A stretch of 64,000 nucleotides of DNA from an uncultured Enterobacterales bacterium (lineage in GTDB: Bacteria; Pseudomonadota; Gammaproteobacteria; Enterobacterales; CALYQQ01). Below are positions 3,958-12,949 of the stretch, piece after piece. The stretch is taken from assembly GCA_945288535.1 (NCBI GenBank), contig CALYQQ010000005.1, forward strand, positions 62,001 to 126,000. Direction: 5' to 3'. Each line of letters begins with the position of its first letter. Position 1 is the stretch's first letter. The notes under the pieces were generated by a model. The model saw only the letters and a program-made list of their open reading frames with translations. It was not told where the DNA came from and made no database searches. The position numbers were made by a program, and so were the translations under genes.

Positions 3958-5025
3958 ATGTACAAATATACTCTGCATTTAGATCATGTATGCTTCAATT
4001 ATTTACTTAATTCTTATAATCGAGAACACCATTTTTCTATTGATTCCGATACACTTTTAATGAAAATAATTAAAGGACAGCGACTATCCAATGCAGATTT
4101 ATGTTTACCATTAACTATTATTTATAAAATAAAGCCTGTCGCATTTTGTTTAGTCCATTTTTCATATAAAGAAAAAATATCAGGTATTGGCAATATATGG
4201 TTCTCCAATGTTATTTCATCTGGAGATGCTAATGCTTTAAAAATAATGTTTGCTAAAATATTCGATTTAGCTTCACAGTATGGTTTTATACGTGGAAAAG
4301 TCCATAATATATATGGACCAATTCATAATTCAATTCTTATTGAGCGGGGTTGTAGGACATTTTCTACCCCACCCTTTTCTTATAATATGCCGGATAATAC
4401 TATAGCCCTTTGCCAATTATTGGAAAATATAGGCTTTCATAAAGAGAAAGATTTAATTGAAATTATCTACGCTTATGATAAACGAGATGAACTTCTTTCA
4501 AACATCCCTAATAAATTATTAAACCGATTATCAAATATTGAATTTTCTTTAGTTCATTCAGATGAAATCTTGAATAATCAACAATCTTATGCCGATTTAT
4601 ATAATAAAGCATGGGCTAAAAATTGGGGATACAGTCCAATAACAAAAGATGAAATTGGAGTTGCAGCACGAAATATTGAAAACATTAGCGGCATGATAGC
4701 AAAAAAAAATAACAACATTATCGGGTTTACTATGTTGCAATACATTGAAAAATCAGGGGAGAAATTTGCACGTGCTTTTTTGTCAGGCGTATTACCCGAG
4801 TATAGGAAAACCGGTTTAGCTATTGTATTAACATCAAAACTATCATCAATGGCTTTAAAAAATGATATTAAGCAATTTAGTATAGCGTGGATGTTGGAAG
4901 ACAACAAAATGATTATTAGAACAATGCAACATATGACCCGATATGGTGAAAGCACAATAAGAAATTATCGTATTTTCAAAGCAACCCAATTAAATTTTGA
5001 AGGAAATTGCAATGAACTTGTTTGA
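3958..5025 (+). CDS. GNAT-superfamily acyltransferase (YghO-like / candidate N-acyltransferase of a lipid cluster)
   Basis: 355 aa; YNKAWAKNWGYSPIT...GFTMLQYIE...SGVLPEYRKTGL GNAT-like C-terminal half; first gene of the packed operon. Confidence 0.6.
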   Translation: MYKYTLHLDHVCFNYLLNSYNREHHFSIDSDTLLMKIIKGQRLSNADLCLPLTIIYKIKPVAFCLVHFSYKEKISGIGNIWFSNVISSGDANALKIMFAKIFDLASQYGFIRGKVHNIYGPIHNSILIERGCRTFSTPPFSYNMPDNTIALCQLLENIGFHKEKDLIEIIYAYDKRDELLSNIPNKLLNRLSNIEFSLVHSDEILNNQQSYADLYNKAWAKNWGYSPITKDEIGVAARNIENISGMIAKKNNNIIGFTMLQYIEKSGEKFARAFLSGVLPEYRKTGLAIVLTSKLSSMALKNDIKQFSIAWMLEDNKMIIRTMQHMTRYGESTIRNYRIFKATQLNFEGNCNELV

Positions 5026-6172
5026 TAGATTTTCATCCGAAACAGCCAAGCAATTTAATTACTTTCCTAAAATAAGATCTGCCTGTGGTAGAGAACTAAA
5101 GTTAGAAAACGGTAATACAAAGTTAAATTTTGCATCGTGTGATTATTTAGGTATGGCCAATAACGATTTTATAAAAGAAGCTGCTATTGATGCCATTAAA
5201 CATTATGGTACTAACATCAGTGGTCCAATGACCTTCTGTGGCTATACAAAATATCATGAAGAACTAGAAAAACGTTATGCGGAACTCTTCAATATTAGCA
5301 TTGCTCTAATGTATACCACGTCATACCAGGCTAATATTGGTGTTTTACCTGTCATTGCTCAAAATATAGATTTAATCGTTATGGATAAACTTTGCCATGT
5401 ATCACTTTATGATGCAGTTAAGCTAAGTAACAAACCATTTCGCGTTTATCAACATAACAACATAACAAGATTGACCGAGATAATTAAGAATAACTTTAAT
5501 AAAAATATCTTAATTGTTTCTGATGGCGTATTTTCTGCAGATGGTGATTATTGCGATATTCGCGCATTGTGTCACCTTAAATCGATCTATCCTAATTTAA
5601 CAATCTATATTGATGATGCTCATGGTGTTGGTACATTAGGTGAAAATGGATGTGGACTAGTTGAAGCTATGGGATGTTTAAATGATGTTGATATTATTAT
5701 TGGCACAATGAGTAAATCATTTGGTTCAACGGGGGGATTCTGCATAATCAAAGATGCGGAATTAGCGCAACAGGTAAGATTTAAAAGTACCACATACAAT
5801 GCCTCAAGGGCTGTATCTCCCGGTGTAGCAGCGGCCTCTTGTATGTCATTAGAAATTAATAAACAAGAAGGTAAAAATCGCCGGAAAAAATTGTCTGAGT
5901 TAGTTGAATACGCACATAAAAAGCTTTGTCAAATTAATATAAATAAGCTGTTATCTAATTCAGTGATTATTCCTGTCATTTTTAACACTGTCGAAAAATC
6001 TTCGCAAATAAATAATATTCTGTTAAATAATGACATTATGGTTTCTCTTTTTGTCCCACCCTATGTTGACAAAAAAAAGTCACGATTGAGAATGACTCTT
6101 ACCTATAACCATACTAGACAAGATATAGATACATTGGTAGACGTTCTATCACGTGCAATATCGGCTATTTAA
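5012..6172 (+). CDS. Alpha-oxoamine synthase (AONS family; serine palmitoyltransferase/KBL/BioF-like), PLP-dependent
   Basis: DDAHGVGTLGENGCG and PLP-lysine motif GTMSKSFGSTGG. ATG at 5012 is preceded by AAGGA; the ORF-track start at 4997 is a TTG. Confidence 0.9.
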   Translation: MNLFDRFSSETAKQFNYFPKIRSACGRELKLENGNTKLNFASCDYLGMANNDFIKEAAIDAIKHYGTNISGPMTFCGYTKYHEELEKRYAELFNISIALMYTTSYQANIGVLPVIAQNIDLIVMDKLCHVSLYDAVKLSNKPFRVYQHNNITRLTEIIKNNFNKNILIVSDGVFSADGDYCDIRALCHLKSIYPNLTIYIDDAHGVGTLGENGCGLVEAMGCLNDVDIIIGTMSKSFGSTGGFCIIKDAELAQQVRFKSTTYNASRAVSPGVAAASCMSLEINKQEGKNRRKKLSELVEYAHKKLCQININKLLSNSVIIPVIFNTVEKSSQINNILLNNDIMVSLFVPPYVDKKKSRLRMTLTYNHTRQDIDTLVDVLSRAISAI

Positions 6173-6182
6173 TAAAGGGAAG

Positions 6183-6929
6183 ATGTCTATGTTTATAGGT
6201 ATCATTATCCCAATAACCATATTGGCTTGTAGTTATTGGTTGTTATGTTCATTATTGGGAGCAATGGCTAATCAATATAATGTAAAAATAAATTACACCA
6301 GGAAGATCGGTCATTTCTCGATGTTCATATTTCCTGGAATTATTTATATATTATTTGATGTAACAAGCTCGATAGATAAGCTTATTATTGCAGCGGCATC
6401 GAGCATAATTTTCTTTATTAGCTTATCTGAAAATTTCAGAAAAAAAGTTAACTATCTAATGTTATCTTTTATAGCGATAGACCGACCTGAAGATCGCCCT
6501 CATACCTTGATTTGGATATTTTCTCAAACTTTTGTTGGTTTTTTTGTATTAACTGCTTTTGCATTGCTTTGGAACTATCTTCATATTCCATATGAACTCA
6601 TGTATATCACAATTCTAACTACAACAATTGGTGATGGCTTGGCCGAACCTATAGGCGTGCGTTTTGGAACACATAAATACTCAGTTAAGGGATTTTTAAT
6701 CGATAAATTATTTTATCGAAGTTATGAGGGAAGTATAACGTTATATGTGATTGCTTTCTCTTTAACTTTGATTTTTTCTGATAATTTTAATCAGTTAGGC
6801 AAAATATTAATGATTTTACTTTATCCAATTATAATGACATTAACTGAAGCTAGATCGCCACATACATGGGACACCCCGTTTCTATTCTTTATAGGTAATT
6901 TATTCGTTACGGTGGCTTATTTATTATGA
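6183..6929 (+). CDS. Phytol/dolichol kinase-like CTP-dependent integral membrane lipid kinase (SEC59/DGK1/VTE5 family)
   Basis: Multi-TM protein with TIGDGLAEPIGVRFGTHKY...YRSYEGS typical of this family; ATG 6183 preceded by AAAGGGA. Confidence 0.7.
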   Translation: MSMFIGIIIPITILACSYWLLCSLLGAMANQYNVKINYTRKIGHFSMFIFPGIIYILFDVTSSIDKLIIAAASSIIFFISLSENFRKKVNYLMLSFIAIDRPEDRPHTLIWIFSQTFVGFFVLTAFALLWNYLHIPYELMYITILTTTIGDGLAEPIGVRFGTHKYSVKGFLIDKLFYRSYEGSITLYVIAFSLTLIFSDNFNQLGKILMILLYPIIMTLTEARSPHTWDTPFLFFIGNLFVTVAYLL

Positions 6930-11781: not shown

Positions 11782-11788
11782 GATTATT

Positions 11789-12220
11789 ATGGAGAATAAT
11801 ATATTAGAAAATATAGTTGAAATAAGCGGAAATCCTCATCGATTCCCTATGCTCCTCATAGATCGTATTATTGATAAACAAAAGCAGGTAATAACAGAAA
11901 AATATATATCTCTCAATGATATTGAGTTTAGTAAAAACAATTCTATTGTAATAGAGAATTTTATTTATCCAAGTTGGCTAATTATTGAATCATTTTTTCA
12001 ATCAGCTGGATTATGGATTGATGGTCAAAAATCAAAAATATTACCCTATGTAATTTCATGTAACGATATAAAAGTTAAACGTAATATATATGGTGGTGAA
12101 ATTATTAGACATTATGTTACGTTAGAAAGTAAAAAAAATGGATTGATAATTGTCAGCGGAATAAGCAAATCGGATAATGAAATAGTGGTAAGTTATAAAC
12201 AAGTGTACATAGGATATTAA
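11789..12220 (+). CDS. Second hotdog dehydratase-like protein (FabA/FabZ-related)
   Basis: GNPHRFPMLLIDRI ... LIIESFFQSAGLW pattern of FabZ-like proteins. Confidence 0.7.
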   Translation: MENNILENIVEISGNPHRFPMLLIDRIIDKQKQVITEKYISLNDIEFSKNNSIVIENFIYPSWLIIESFFQSAGLWIDGQKSKILPYVISCNDIKVKRNIYGGEIIRHYVTLESKKNGLIIVSGISKSDNEIVVSYKQVYIGY

Positions 12221-12235
12221 TCAAAGTTAGAAACT

Positions 12236-12949
12236 ATGTTAGCAGTGATTCGTCTGATTATAATAGGTATTTTTATTCTAATAAGTAGTGTACTAATTTT
12301 TACTCTTTGTTTACTACGACCTCGCAACCCGATGAATGTTTATATTGCAGCAAGAATGTATGGTAGTTTGGCGAGCGTATTAGGTATAAAAATACATATT
12401 ACCGGTAAAGAGAATATCTTACCGGATAGTTGTGTTTACGTAGCAAATCACCAGAGTAATTACGATATTTTTATTTTAACAAAGGCTGTTCCCCCACGAA
12501 CGGTTAGTATAGGAAAGCAAAGCATTATCTATTTCCCTTTTTTTGGCTTAATATATTGGCTTTCAGGAAATATATTTATTGATCGTTCCAATAGAGTAAA
12601 AGCCATTAAAAGTCTCAATAAAGTTAATTATTTAATAAGGGAAAAAAGAATTTCAGTATGGTTATTTCCTGAAGGAACACGAAATTATGGGAAAGAACTT
12701 AAACAATTTAAATCAGGTGCATTTCATTTAGCTCGTAATGCTGGTGTTCCTATCGTACCCGTATGTATTAGTAATTATTATTTAGATTTTAAACTTAACA
12801 GATTAAGTAATGGTGTCGTAGAAATTAAGTTTCTTAAACCAATAGCACAAGATTTTTTTGTGAACAAATCATCACATCAAATTTCTGAGTATTTATATAA
12901 CATTATGTCATATCAGATTACAAAAATGAGCAAAATAGATAAACAATAA
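12236..12949 (+). CDS. 1-acyl-sn-glycerol-3-phosphate acyltransferase-like (PlsC family)
   Basis: HX4D motif (NHQSNYD) and FPEGTRNYG. Confidence 0.92.
   Translation: MLAVIRLIIIGIFILISSVLIFTLCLLRPRNPMNVYIAARMYGSLASVLGIKIHITGKENILPDSCVYVANHQSNYDIFILTKAVPPRTVSIGKQSIIYFPFFGLIYWLSGNIFIDRSNRVKAIKSLNKVNYLIREKRISVWLFPEGTRNYGKELKQFKSGAFHLARNAGVPIVPVCISNYYLDFKLNRLSNGVVEIKFLKPIAQDFFVNKSSHQISEYLYNIMSYQITKMSKIDKQ

What the first reader, a model, noticed from the sequence alone, without database searches (positions are those of the whole stretch)
3958..12949. Uncharacterised 12-gene operon predicted to make an aminolipid, possibly sphingolipid-like, with its own fatty-acid machinery
Twelve same-strand genes with overlaps or tiny gaps combine an alpha-oxoamine synthase (amino acid + acyl thioester condensation, as in serine palmitoyltransferase), a dedicated ACP, KS, CLF-like protein, two dehydratases, an extended-SDR reductase, a GNAT acyltransferase and a PlsC. 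AONS + ACP + SDR reductase + GNAT parallels the logic of bacterial ceramide synthesis (Spt, ACP, CerR, bCerS in Caulobacter). The KS/CLF/dehydratase set, lipid kinase-like protein, phosphatase and methyltransferase are additions I do not recognise in a described pathway.
Basis: inference. Interest (0 to 1): 0.88.

Follow-up and report, generated by a model that had tools for sequence, protein, structure and literature searches.

The report
Mobile polyketide-fed aminolipid operon
Twelve adjacent genes, found scattered among a few unrelated bacteria and carried on a mobile element in one of them, look like a complete kit for building a fatty chain on a small polyketide machine, joining it to an amino acid and turning the result into a membrane lipid that does not match any pathway I could find described.

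Summary
In detail: twelve same-strand genes with tiny overlaps at 3958-12949. The same twelve genes occur in the same order in Nicoletella semolina, inside an integrative conjugative element, and as a decayed copy in Brenneria alni; single-gene orthologues occur in Xenorhabdus, Erwinia, Raoultella, Enterobacter, Pectobacterium and Pseudomonas. It is rare (a few per thousand genomes sampled).

[quoted passage not shown] The alpha-oxoamine synthase is catalytically complete but forms its own clade (100/100), outside SPT, BioF, Kbl and ALAS, and lacks the Ser-Arg pair of the SPTs compared. The tandem-GNAT is private to this operon. CerR and AcpR of real sphingolipid clusters show no detectable similarity, and no acyl-ACP synthetase is present.

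Best reading: a type-II-PKS-fed, probably polyunsaturated, aminolipid pathway; sphingolipid-like in logic, not a member of the known ceramide pathway. Amino acid and head group are unresolved, and no dedicated ketoreductase is encoded.

The parts
3958..5025 (+). g1: tandem-GNAT acyltransferase, 355 aa; predicted N-acyltransferase
   Evidence: Pfam Acetyltransf_1 weak; AlphaFold model pLDDT 83 with two GNAT-like domains, best PDB matches tandem GNATs 7q3a/2wpw/5kf1, E about 1e-11; only 20 relatives in 5.8 billion proteins, the named ones in operon-bearing taxa
5012..6172 (+). g2: PLP-dependent alpha-oxoamine synthase of a distinct clade (ORF may start at TTG 4997)
   Evidence: Pfam Aminotran_1_2 8e-42; catalytic Lys, Asp, His conserved; own clade 100/100; SPT Ser-Arg pair replaced by Pro-Met
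6189..6929 (+). g3: polytopic membrane protein annotated in relatives as phytol/dolichol kinase (ORF opens at 6153)
   Evidence: model pLDDT 92, all-helical, no significant PDB match
6926..7483 (+). g4: histidine phosphatase superfamily (CobC/SixA-like), RH and distal H present
   Evidence: Pfam His_Phos_1 9.6e-8; sequence
7480..8376 (+). g5: extended SDR, candidate ketone reductase; GASGFIG and YxxxK present
   Evidence: Pfam Epimerase 2.5e-5; no detectable similarity to sphingomonad CerR
8373..8990 (+). g6: membrane methyltransferase, ICMT/PEMT type
   Evidence: Pfam ICMT 5.5e-15; weak match to LmtA lipid A 1-phosphate O-methyltransferase 1.4e-6
9006..9278 (+). g7: acyl carrier protein, DSI attachment motif
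   Evidence: Pfam PP-binding 1.7e-11
9275..10489 (+). g8: active ketosynthase (Cys-His-His) of the highly reducing type II PKS clade
   Evidence: best PDB 9s5h_B 271 bits and 6kxd_A 267 bits, best FabF 203; tree 99/99; Glu112 aligned with Iga11 Asp113
10486..11436 (+). g9: chain-length-factor-like partner, 316 aa, catalytic Cys replaced by Glu
   Evidence: best PDB 6kxd_B 4.7e-7; alignment
11467..11781 (+). g10: DH half carrying the catalytic His (GHFP), lacking the Glu helix
   Evidence: alignment with E. coli FabZ and two orthologues
11789..12220 (+). g11: DH half carrying the catalytic Glu (ESFFQSAG), lacking the His
   Evidence: alignment; fused to g10 in one ORF in Brenneria
12236..12949 (+). 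g12: PlsC-family O-acyltransferase
   Evidence: Pfam Acyltransferase 4.8e-37; AGP_acyltrn over cut-off
13015..13513 (-). VirB9/CagX conjugation gene remnant split over two frames; neighbour, possible trace of the element that brought the operon

Best explanation
A horizontally acquired operon for a type-II-polyketide-derived aminolipid. SHOWN by sequence: the ACP (g7), KS (g8), CLF-like protein (g9) and a dehydratase assembled from two complementary halves (g10 His, g11 Glu) form an elongation module of the highly reducing (polyene) type II PKS kind; a PLP-dependent alpha-oxoamine synthase of its own clade sits with it. INFERRED: the module builds a chain on the ACP, leaving double bonds because no enoyl reductase is encoded; the AONS takes it off by decarboxylative condensation with a small amino acid, giving a 2-amino-3-ketone; the SDR (g5) reduces the ketone, the tandem-GNAT (g1) N-acylates the amine, and PlsC (g12) O-acylates a hydroxyl. 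The kinase-like membrane protein (g3), phosphatase (g4) and ICMT/PEMT-like methyltransferase (g6) probably finish a phosphate-bearing or methylated head group. Amino acid, chain length, unsaturation, order of late steps and head group are not determined.
For: Same 12 genes in the same order in Nicoletella and, decayed, in Brenneria, so it travels as a unit. KS closest in the PDB to 9s5h_B and 6kxd_A, well above FabF and aryl-polyene KSs; KS clade 99/99 with those two. Acidic residue at the Iga11 Asp113 position (Glu here, Asp in both orthologues), the release residue reported for ishigamide KS and absent in APE KSs (PMC8358021). CLF lacks Cys in three orthologues. DH halves complementary in three orthologues, matching the reported single-site ApeI/ApeP heterodimer (PMC8041823). 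AONS catalytic residues intact in a 100/100 clade. GNAT found only in this context. Precedent: PKS + AONS giving sphingolipids, PfSgaAB (PMC12134224).
Against: No FabG-type ketoreductase is encoded, and in aryl polyene synthesis FabG could not replace ApeQ (PMC8041823), so the ketoreduction step is unassigned. Nothing shows that the AONS takes the chain made by this KS rather than a host acyl-ACP. Host FabI could saturate the chain. Lipid destiny rests on PlsC, g3 and g6 family resemblance; g3 has no significant model or structure match. Roles of g4 and g6 are guesses.
Confidence: 0.6

Rival explanations
1. One reading: a true sphingolipid pathway. The AONS is a serine palmitoyltransferase using an ordinary saturated acyl-ACP, and SDR + GNAT give dihydroceramide, later phosphorylated by g3.
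For: Serine would supply the 1-OH that a kinase needs; AONS + ACP + SDR + GNAT fits the chemistry; PfSgaB is an SPT outside classical sphingolipid clusters (PMC12134224).
Against: AONS far below all SPT cut-offs, separate clade, Ser-Arg motif of SPTs replaced by Pro-Met; no similarity of SDR/ACP to CerR/AcpR; no aasR; KS is not a FabF-type KS.
Confidence: 0.2
2. The product is a released small molecule (aminoketone signal, pigment or antibiotic) and not a membrane lipid; PlsC and GNAT tailor it.
For: Sporadic, mobile-element-borne distribution typical of specialised metabolism; the AONS-type CAI-1 autoinducer synthase is a PDB homologue.
Against: PlsC, polytopic kinase-like and ICMT/PEMT-like proteins point to a lipid substrate; no exporter gene in the operon.
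Confidence: 0.13
3. The type II PKS module makes the acyl donor for the GNAT or PlsC (an esterified or amide-linked polyene, as in aryl polyene lipids), while the AONS uses a host acyl-ACP.
For: PlsC-type acyltransferases could take an ACP-bound chain; only one ACP is encoded, so routing is open.
Against: AONS release of an ACP-bound chain is the simplest use of a lone dedicated ACP; no direct evidence either way.
Confidence: 0.07

Closest known systems
PfSgaAB(C) sphinganine cluster, Pseudomonas fluorescens MYb115 (PMC12134224)
   Same: A polyketide synthase feeds an alpha-oxoamine synthase, with an SDR for the ketone; product is a lipid
   Different: SgaA is an iterative type I PKS; here a type II module with KS/CLF, ACP and a heterodimeric DH, plus GNAT, PlsC, kinase-like, phosphatase and methyltransferase genes absent from the two-gene core
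Highly reducing type II PKS (ishigamide Iga11-Iga12; related cispentacin AmcF-AmcG)
   Same: KS clade, CLF partner, acidic release residue, dedicated ACP and DH
   Different: No KR gene in the operon; chain presumably removed by an AONS
Aryl polyene clusters (ApeO/C, ApeI/P)
   Same: KS-CLF plus heterodimeric DH with one active site; lipid setting
   Different: KS of a different clade, no ApeQ KR, no aryl starter genes, no LolA/MMPL export genes
Caulobacter/sphingomonad ceramide pathway (aasR, cerR, acpR, spt, cerS)
   Same: Logic of AONS, ACP, SDR, N-acyltransferase
   Different: Components not orthologous where tested; aasR absent; no KS/CLF/DH there
Ornithine-lipid OlsB/OlsA
   Same: GNAT N-acyltransferase plus PlsC-type O-acyltransferase pairing (own knowledge)
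   Different: g1 hits no OlsB model; OlsA models are far below cut-off for g12

Membership tests
Highly reducing type II PKS | KS of the HR type II clade with intact Cys-His-His | tested here: met
Highly reducing type II PKS | CLF partner lacking the active Cys | tested here: met
   Glu at the Cys position in three orthologues; sequence match to 6kxd_B E 4.7e-7
Highly reducing type II PKS | Dehydratase acting each cycle | tested here: met
   Complementary His and Glu half-subunits; presence only, activity not tested
Highly reducing type II PKS | Ketoreductase in the cluster | tested here: not met
   No FabG/ApeQ-type SDR among the twelve genes; g5 is an extended SDR. The published definition names a KR (PMC10698177), so I call it an HR-type-like module, a partial member at most
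Highly reducing type II PKS | Product is a conjugated polyene | not testable with these tools
   needs UV-Vis / LC-MS
Serine palmitoyltransferase | Curated SPT models over cut-off | tested here: not met
   247/640, 227/500, 177/670 bits; these models may also miss SgaB-type SPTs
Serine palmitoyltransferase | Groups with known SPTs in a tree | tested here: not met
   separate 100/100 clade; PfSgaB itself not available for the tree
Serine palmitoyltransferase | Serine specificity | not testable with these tools
   needs enzyme assay; SPT Ser-Arg motif absent
Rhodobacterial ceramide pathway | cerR and acpR orthologues next to spt | tested here: not met
   no blastp/phmmer similarity between g5/g7 and the SPT-adjacent SDR/ACP of a sphingomonad-like genome
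Rhodobacterial ceramide pathway | cerS orthologue | tested here: inconclusive
   no cerS identified in the 38 kb fetched around spt; g1 matches no curated model
Aryl polyene cluster | APE-type KS, ApeQ, aryl starter and export genes | tested here: not met
   KS in another clade from this genome's own APE-like KSs; other genes absent

The most novel reading that the evidence does not exclude
A new lipid class: conjugated-polyene sphingoid-like aminolipids made by a type II polyketide synthase and an alpha-oxoamine synthase, moved between bacteria on integrative conjugative elements; a membrane counterpart of aryl polyenes built on an amino acid head.
Probability: 0.35. Interest if true: 0.85.

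Novelty: new variant of a known kind. Interest (0 to 1): 0.66.

Why it matters
Sphingolipid-like lipids were thought confined to a few bacterial groups; a 2025 paper showed that a type I PKS can feed an oxoamine synthase in Pseudomonas and that the lipids protect a host. This operon suggests that a type II PKS has been wired to a different oxoamine synthase clade, with its own N- and O-acyltransferases, and that the pathway moves between host- and plant-associated Enterobacterales and Pasteurellaceae. It is a nine-kilobase unit small enough to express whole and test, and would be missed by searches for spt, cerR or type I PKSs.

Tried and rejected
Direct search for the operon in 5,426 complete E. 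coli genomes with the window's AONS and KS DNA and with the Brenneria AONS DNA: no match, although E. coli appears among the names of single proteins. Plasmid search: no AONS over 60% identity. The genome-contig scan with a single protein gave only three distant Bacteroidota AONSs, which did not reach SPT cut-offs. Phylum-wide sampling for the kinase-like protein: none beyond the own genome. PDB fold search for g3: best is CDP-DAG synthetase at E 0.5, not significant, so kinase identity is not claimed as shown. The fold of g1 (tandem GNAT) is too general to name a substrate. Looking for an insertion boundary: no clear direct repeats around the operon. Promoter scan no better than shuffles, terminator scan barely so. 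Literature searches for this gene set returned nothing matching. A first idea that the AONS is BioF-like, because BioF is its top NCBIfam model, was dropped after the tree.
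Full report
OBSERVATION. Twelve ORFs on the + strand between 3958 and 12949 follow one another with overlaps of 4-14 nt and gaps of 7-30 nt. The window lies in a 2.5 Mb, 29-contig genome. Upstream is icd (ends 1014) and 2.9 kb of AT-rich DNA without long ORFs; downstream, on the other strand, a broken virB9 (13015-13513) and a Tus-family gene (13966-14877).

GENE CALLS. Pfam and NCBIfam give: g1 weak GNAT; g2 alpha-oxoamine synthase; g3 nothing; g4 histidine phosphatase; g5 extended SDR; g6 ICMT/PEMT-like methyltransferase with a weak hit to LmtA, a lipid A phosphate methyltransferase; g7 ACP; g8 KS; g9 remnant KS-like; g10 and g11 FabA/Z-like; g12 PlsC-like. 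Relatives of g3 are named phytol or dolichol kinase by sources; the conserved GDGLAEPxGxxFGxxxY and RSxEGS segments fit that CTP-dependent kinase group from my own knowledge, but its high-confidence model (pLDDT 92) has no significant PDB match.

DISTRIBUTION. The AONS has 66-71% identical relatives in Erwinia, Xenorhabdus bovienii, Raoultella and Sodalis, 59% in an unnamed cluster, 58% in a Nitrotoga MAG and about 53% in Pseudomonas. g1 has only 20 relatives in 5.8 billion proteins; the named ones are Xenorhabdus, Brenneria alni, Enterobacter, E. coli, Erwinia and Nicoletella, so it appears private to the operon. Sampling of whole genomes: 2 of 395 in the order including the own genome, 1 of 398 in the family holding Brenneria, 1 of 140 in the family holding Nicoletella, 1 of 10 Brenneria, none beyond the own genome in class and phylum samples. 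The names Nicoletella semolina (G284) and Brenneria alni (G1296) are inferred: an identical g1 sequence and a matching contig length of 48,840.

CONSERVATION AND MOBILITY. In Nicoletella all twelve genes are in the same order; identities by tblastn run from 37% (DH1) to 62% (KS). Its flanks carry a MobH/PFGI-1-class ICE relaxase over cut-off and a tyrosine integrase on one side, and a TraC-type conjugative ATPase and a TIGR03749 ICE protein over cut-off on the other: the operon rides an ICE. In Brenneria the copy is decaying: g3 has an internal deletion, g6 is frame-broken, g12 is gone next to an IS3-type transposase. In the window only a virB9 remnant is left as a possible trace.

TYPE II POLYKETIDE MODULE. 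The KS matches PDB 9s5h_B (271 bits) and 6kxd_A (267 bits) far better than FabF (203). 6KXD is used as a typical KS-CLF complex in PMC10698177; that it is ishigamide Iga11-Iga12 is my knowledge. In an ML tree the operon KSs join 9s5h_B, 6kxd_A and a Streptomyces KS (99/99), apart from FabF, from this genome's own aryl-polyene-like KSs and from its aromatic-type KS. The KS keeps Cys, His and His; at the Cys position the CLF-like protein has Glu in three orthologues. PMC8358021 reports that Asp113 of Iga11 releases the ketoacyl-ACP for reduction and dehydration and is missing from aryl polyene KSs. The aligned residue is Glu112 here and Asp in Nicoletella and Brenneria (GTTDGES). I read this as a specific sign of the highly reducing subgroup.

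ONE DEHYDRATASE, NOT TWO. Aligned with E. coli FabZ, g10 keeps GHFP with the catalytic His but has lost the segment with the catalytic Glu; g11 keeps the Glu (ESFFQSAG) but has lost the His. The pattern is the same in Nicoletella and Brenneria. FabZ builds each site from His of one subunit and Glu of the other (own knowledge), so a g10:g11 dimer would have exactly one working site. PMC8041823 describes the aryl polyene ApeI/ApeP dehydratase in those terms. In Brenneria both halves lie in one ORF, which fits partnership, although that copy is decaying.

THE OXOAMINE SYNTHASE. PLP-Lys, Asp and the stacking His are intact. A tree of 34 AONSs puts the operon enzymes, several metagenomic relatives and a B. 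thuringiensis plasmid enzyme in a clade (100/100) apart from SPT, Kbl, BioF and ALAS. Classical SPTs have GSRxLNGT; here it is GPMxFCGYT. In Sphingobacterium SPT the Ser of that motif (Ser81) is, as I recall, a serine-carboxylate contact. SPT equivalog models fail by hundreds of bits. PfSgaB, a proven SPT in another setting, was not available for the tree, so serine use is not excluded.

NOT THE CERAMIDE PATHWAY. [quoted passage not shown] The SDR and ACP beside an alphaproteobacterial-type spt (SPT model over cut-off) have no blastp or phmmer similarity to g5 and g7, and the two SPTs compared are 25-28% identical to g2. No acyl-ACP synthetase occurs in the operon. It works like a ceramide pathway in outline; it is not a member.

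HOW IT PROBABLY WORKS. Chain built on g7 by g8/g9 and dehydrated by g10:g11; ketoreduction by an unassigned enzyme; AONS release to an aminoketone; reduction by g5; N-acylation by g1; O-acylation by g12; g3, g4 and g6 complete the head. Gene content supports the first part best; everything after AONS is inference from family. The weakest point is the missing ketoreductase: FabG could not replace ApeQ in aryl polyene synthesis. Closest published logic is PfSgaAB, a type I PKS plus AONS making sphinganines.

VERDICT. A real, mobile, apparently undescribed operon; a new variant of PKS-fed aminolipid synthesis. Literature coverage is limited to open-licence PMC papers, so a description elsewhere cannot be ruled out.

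Noticed in passing
G000:C24, L038 2838-11871: The same genome holds an aryl-polyene-like cluster (two KSs, FabG2-type KR, a dehydratase-like gene, LolA-like, HpnN-like transporter, DUF3261).
   Followed up: partly
G000:C9, L037 6098-14440: An aromatic-type type II PKS cluster with polyketide cyclase, KR, KS, CLF and a phosphopantetheinyl-transferase-like gene, plus several tandem monooxygenase-like genes.
   Followed up: partly
G000:C8 near 60647: A 5,378-residue open frame with a KS match, probably a large PKS/NRPS.
   Followed up: no
window 13015-13513: VirB9-type conjugation gene broken into two frames right after the operon.
   Followed up: partly
window 1015-3957: 2.9 kb of AT-rich DNA (26% GC in 2001-4000) with no long ORF between icd and the operon, unusually long for a small genome.
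   Followed up: partly
L006 8190-8859: The kinase-like gene of the Nicoletella copy is split over two frames in this assembly; a close metagenomic relative (P0132) is open.
   Followed up: no
window 6189-6929 and alignment A1: The kinase-like family extends at about 40% identity to Bacteroidota, Planctomycetes and others with invariant DRPED and PHTWD motifs, yet has no Pfam or NCBIfam model.
   Followed up: partly
L023 8558-11948: A B. thuringiensis plasmid carries a small ACP + AONS + phosphopantetheinyl transferase set whose AONS belongs to the same broad clade.
   Followed up: no
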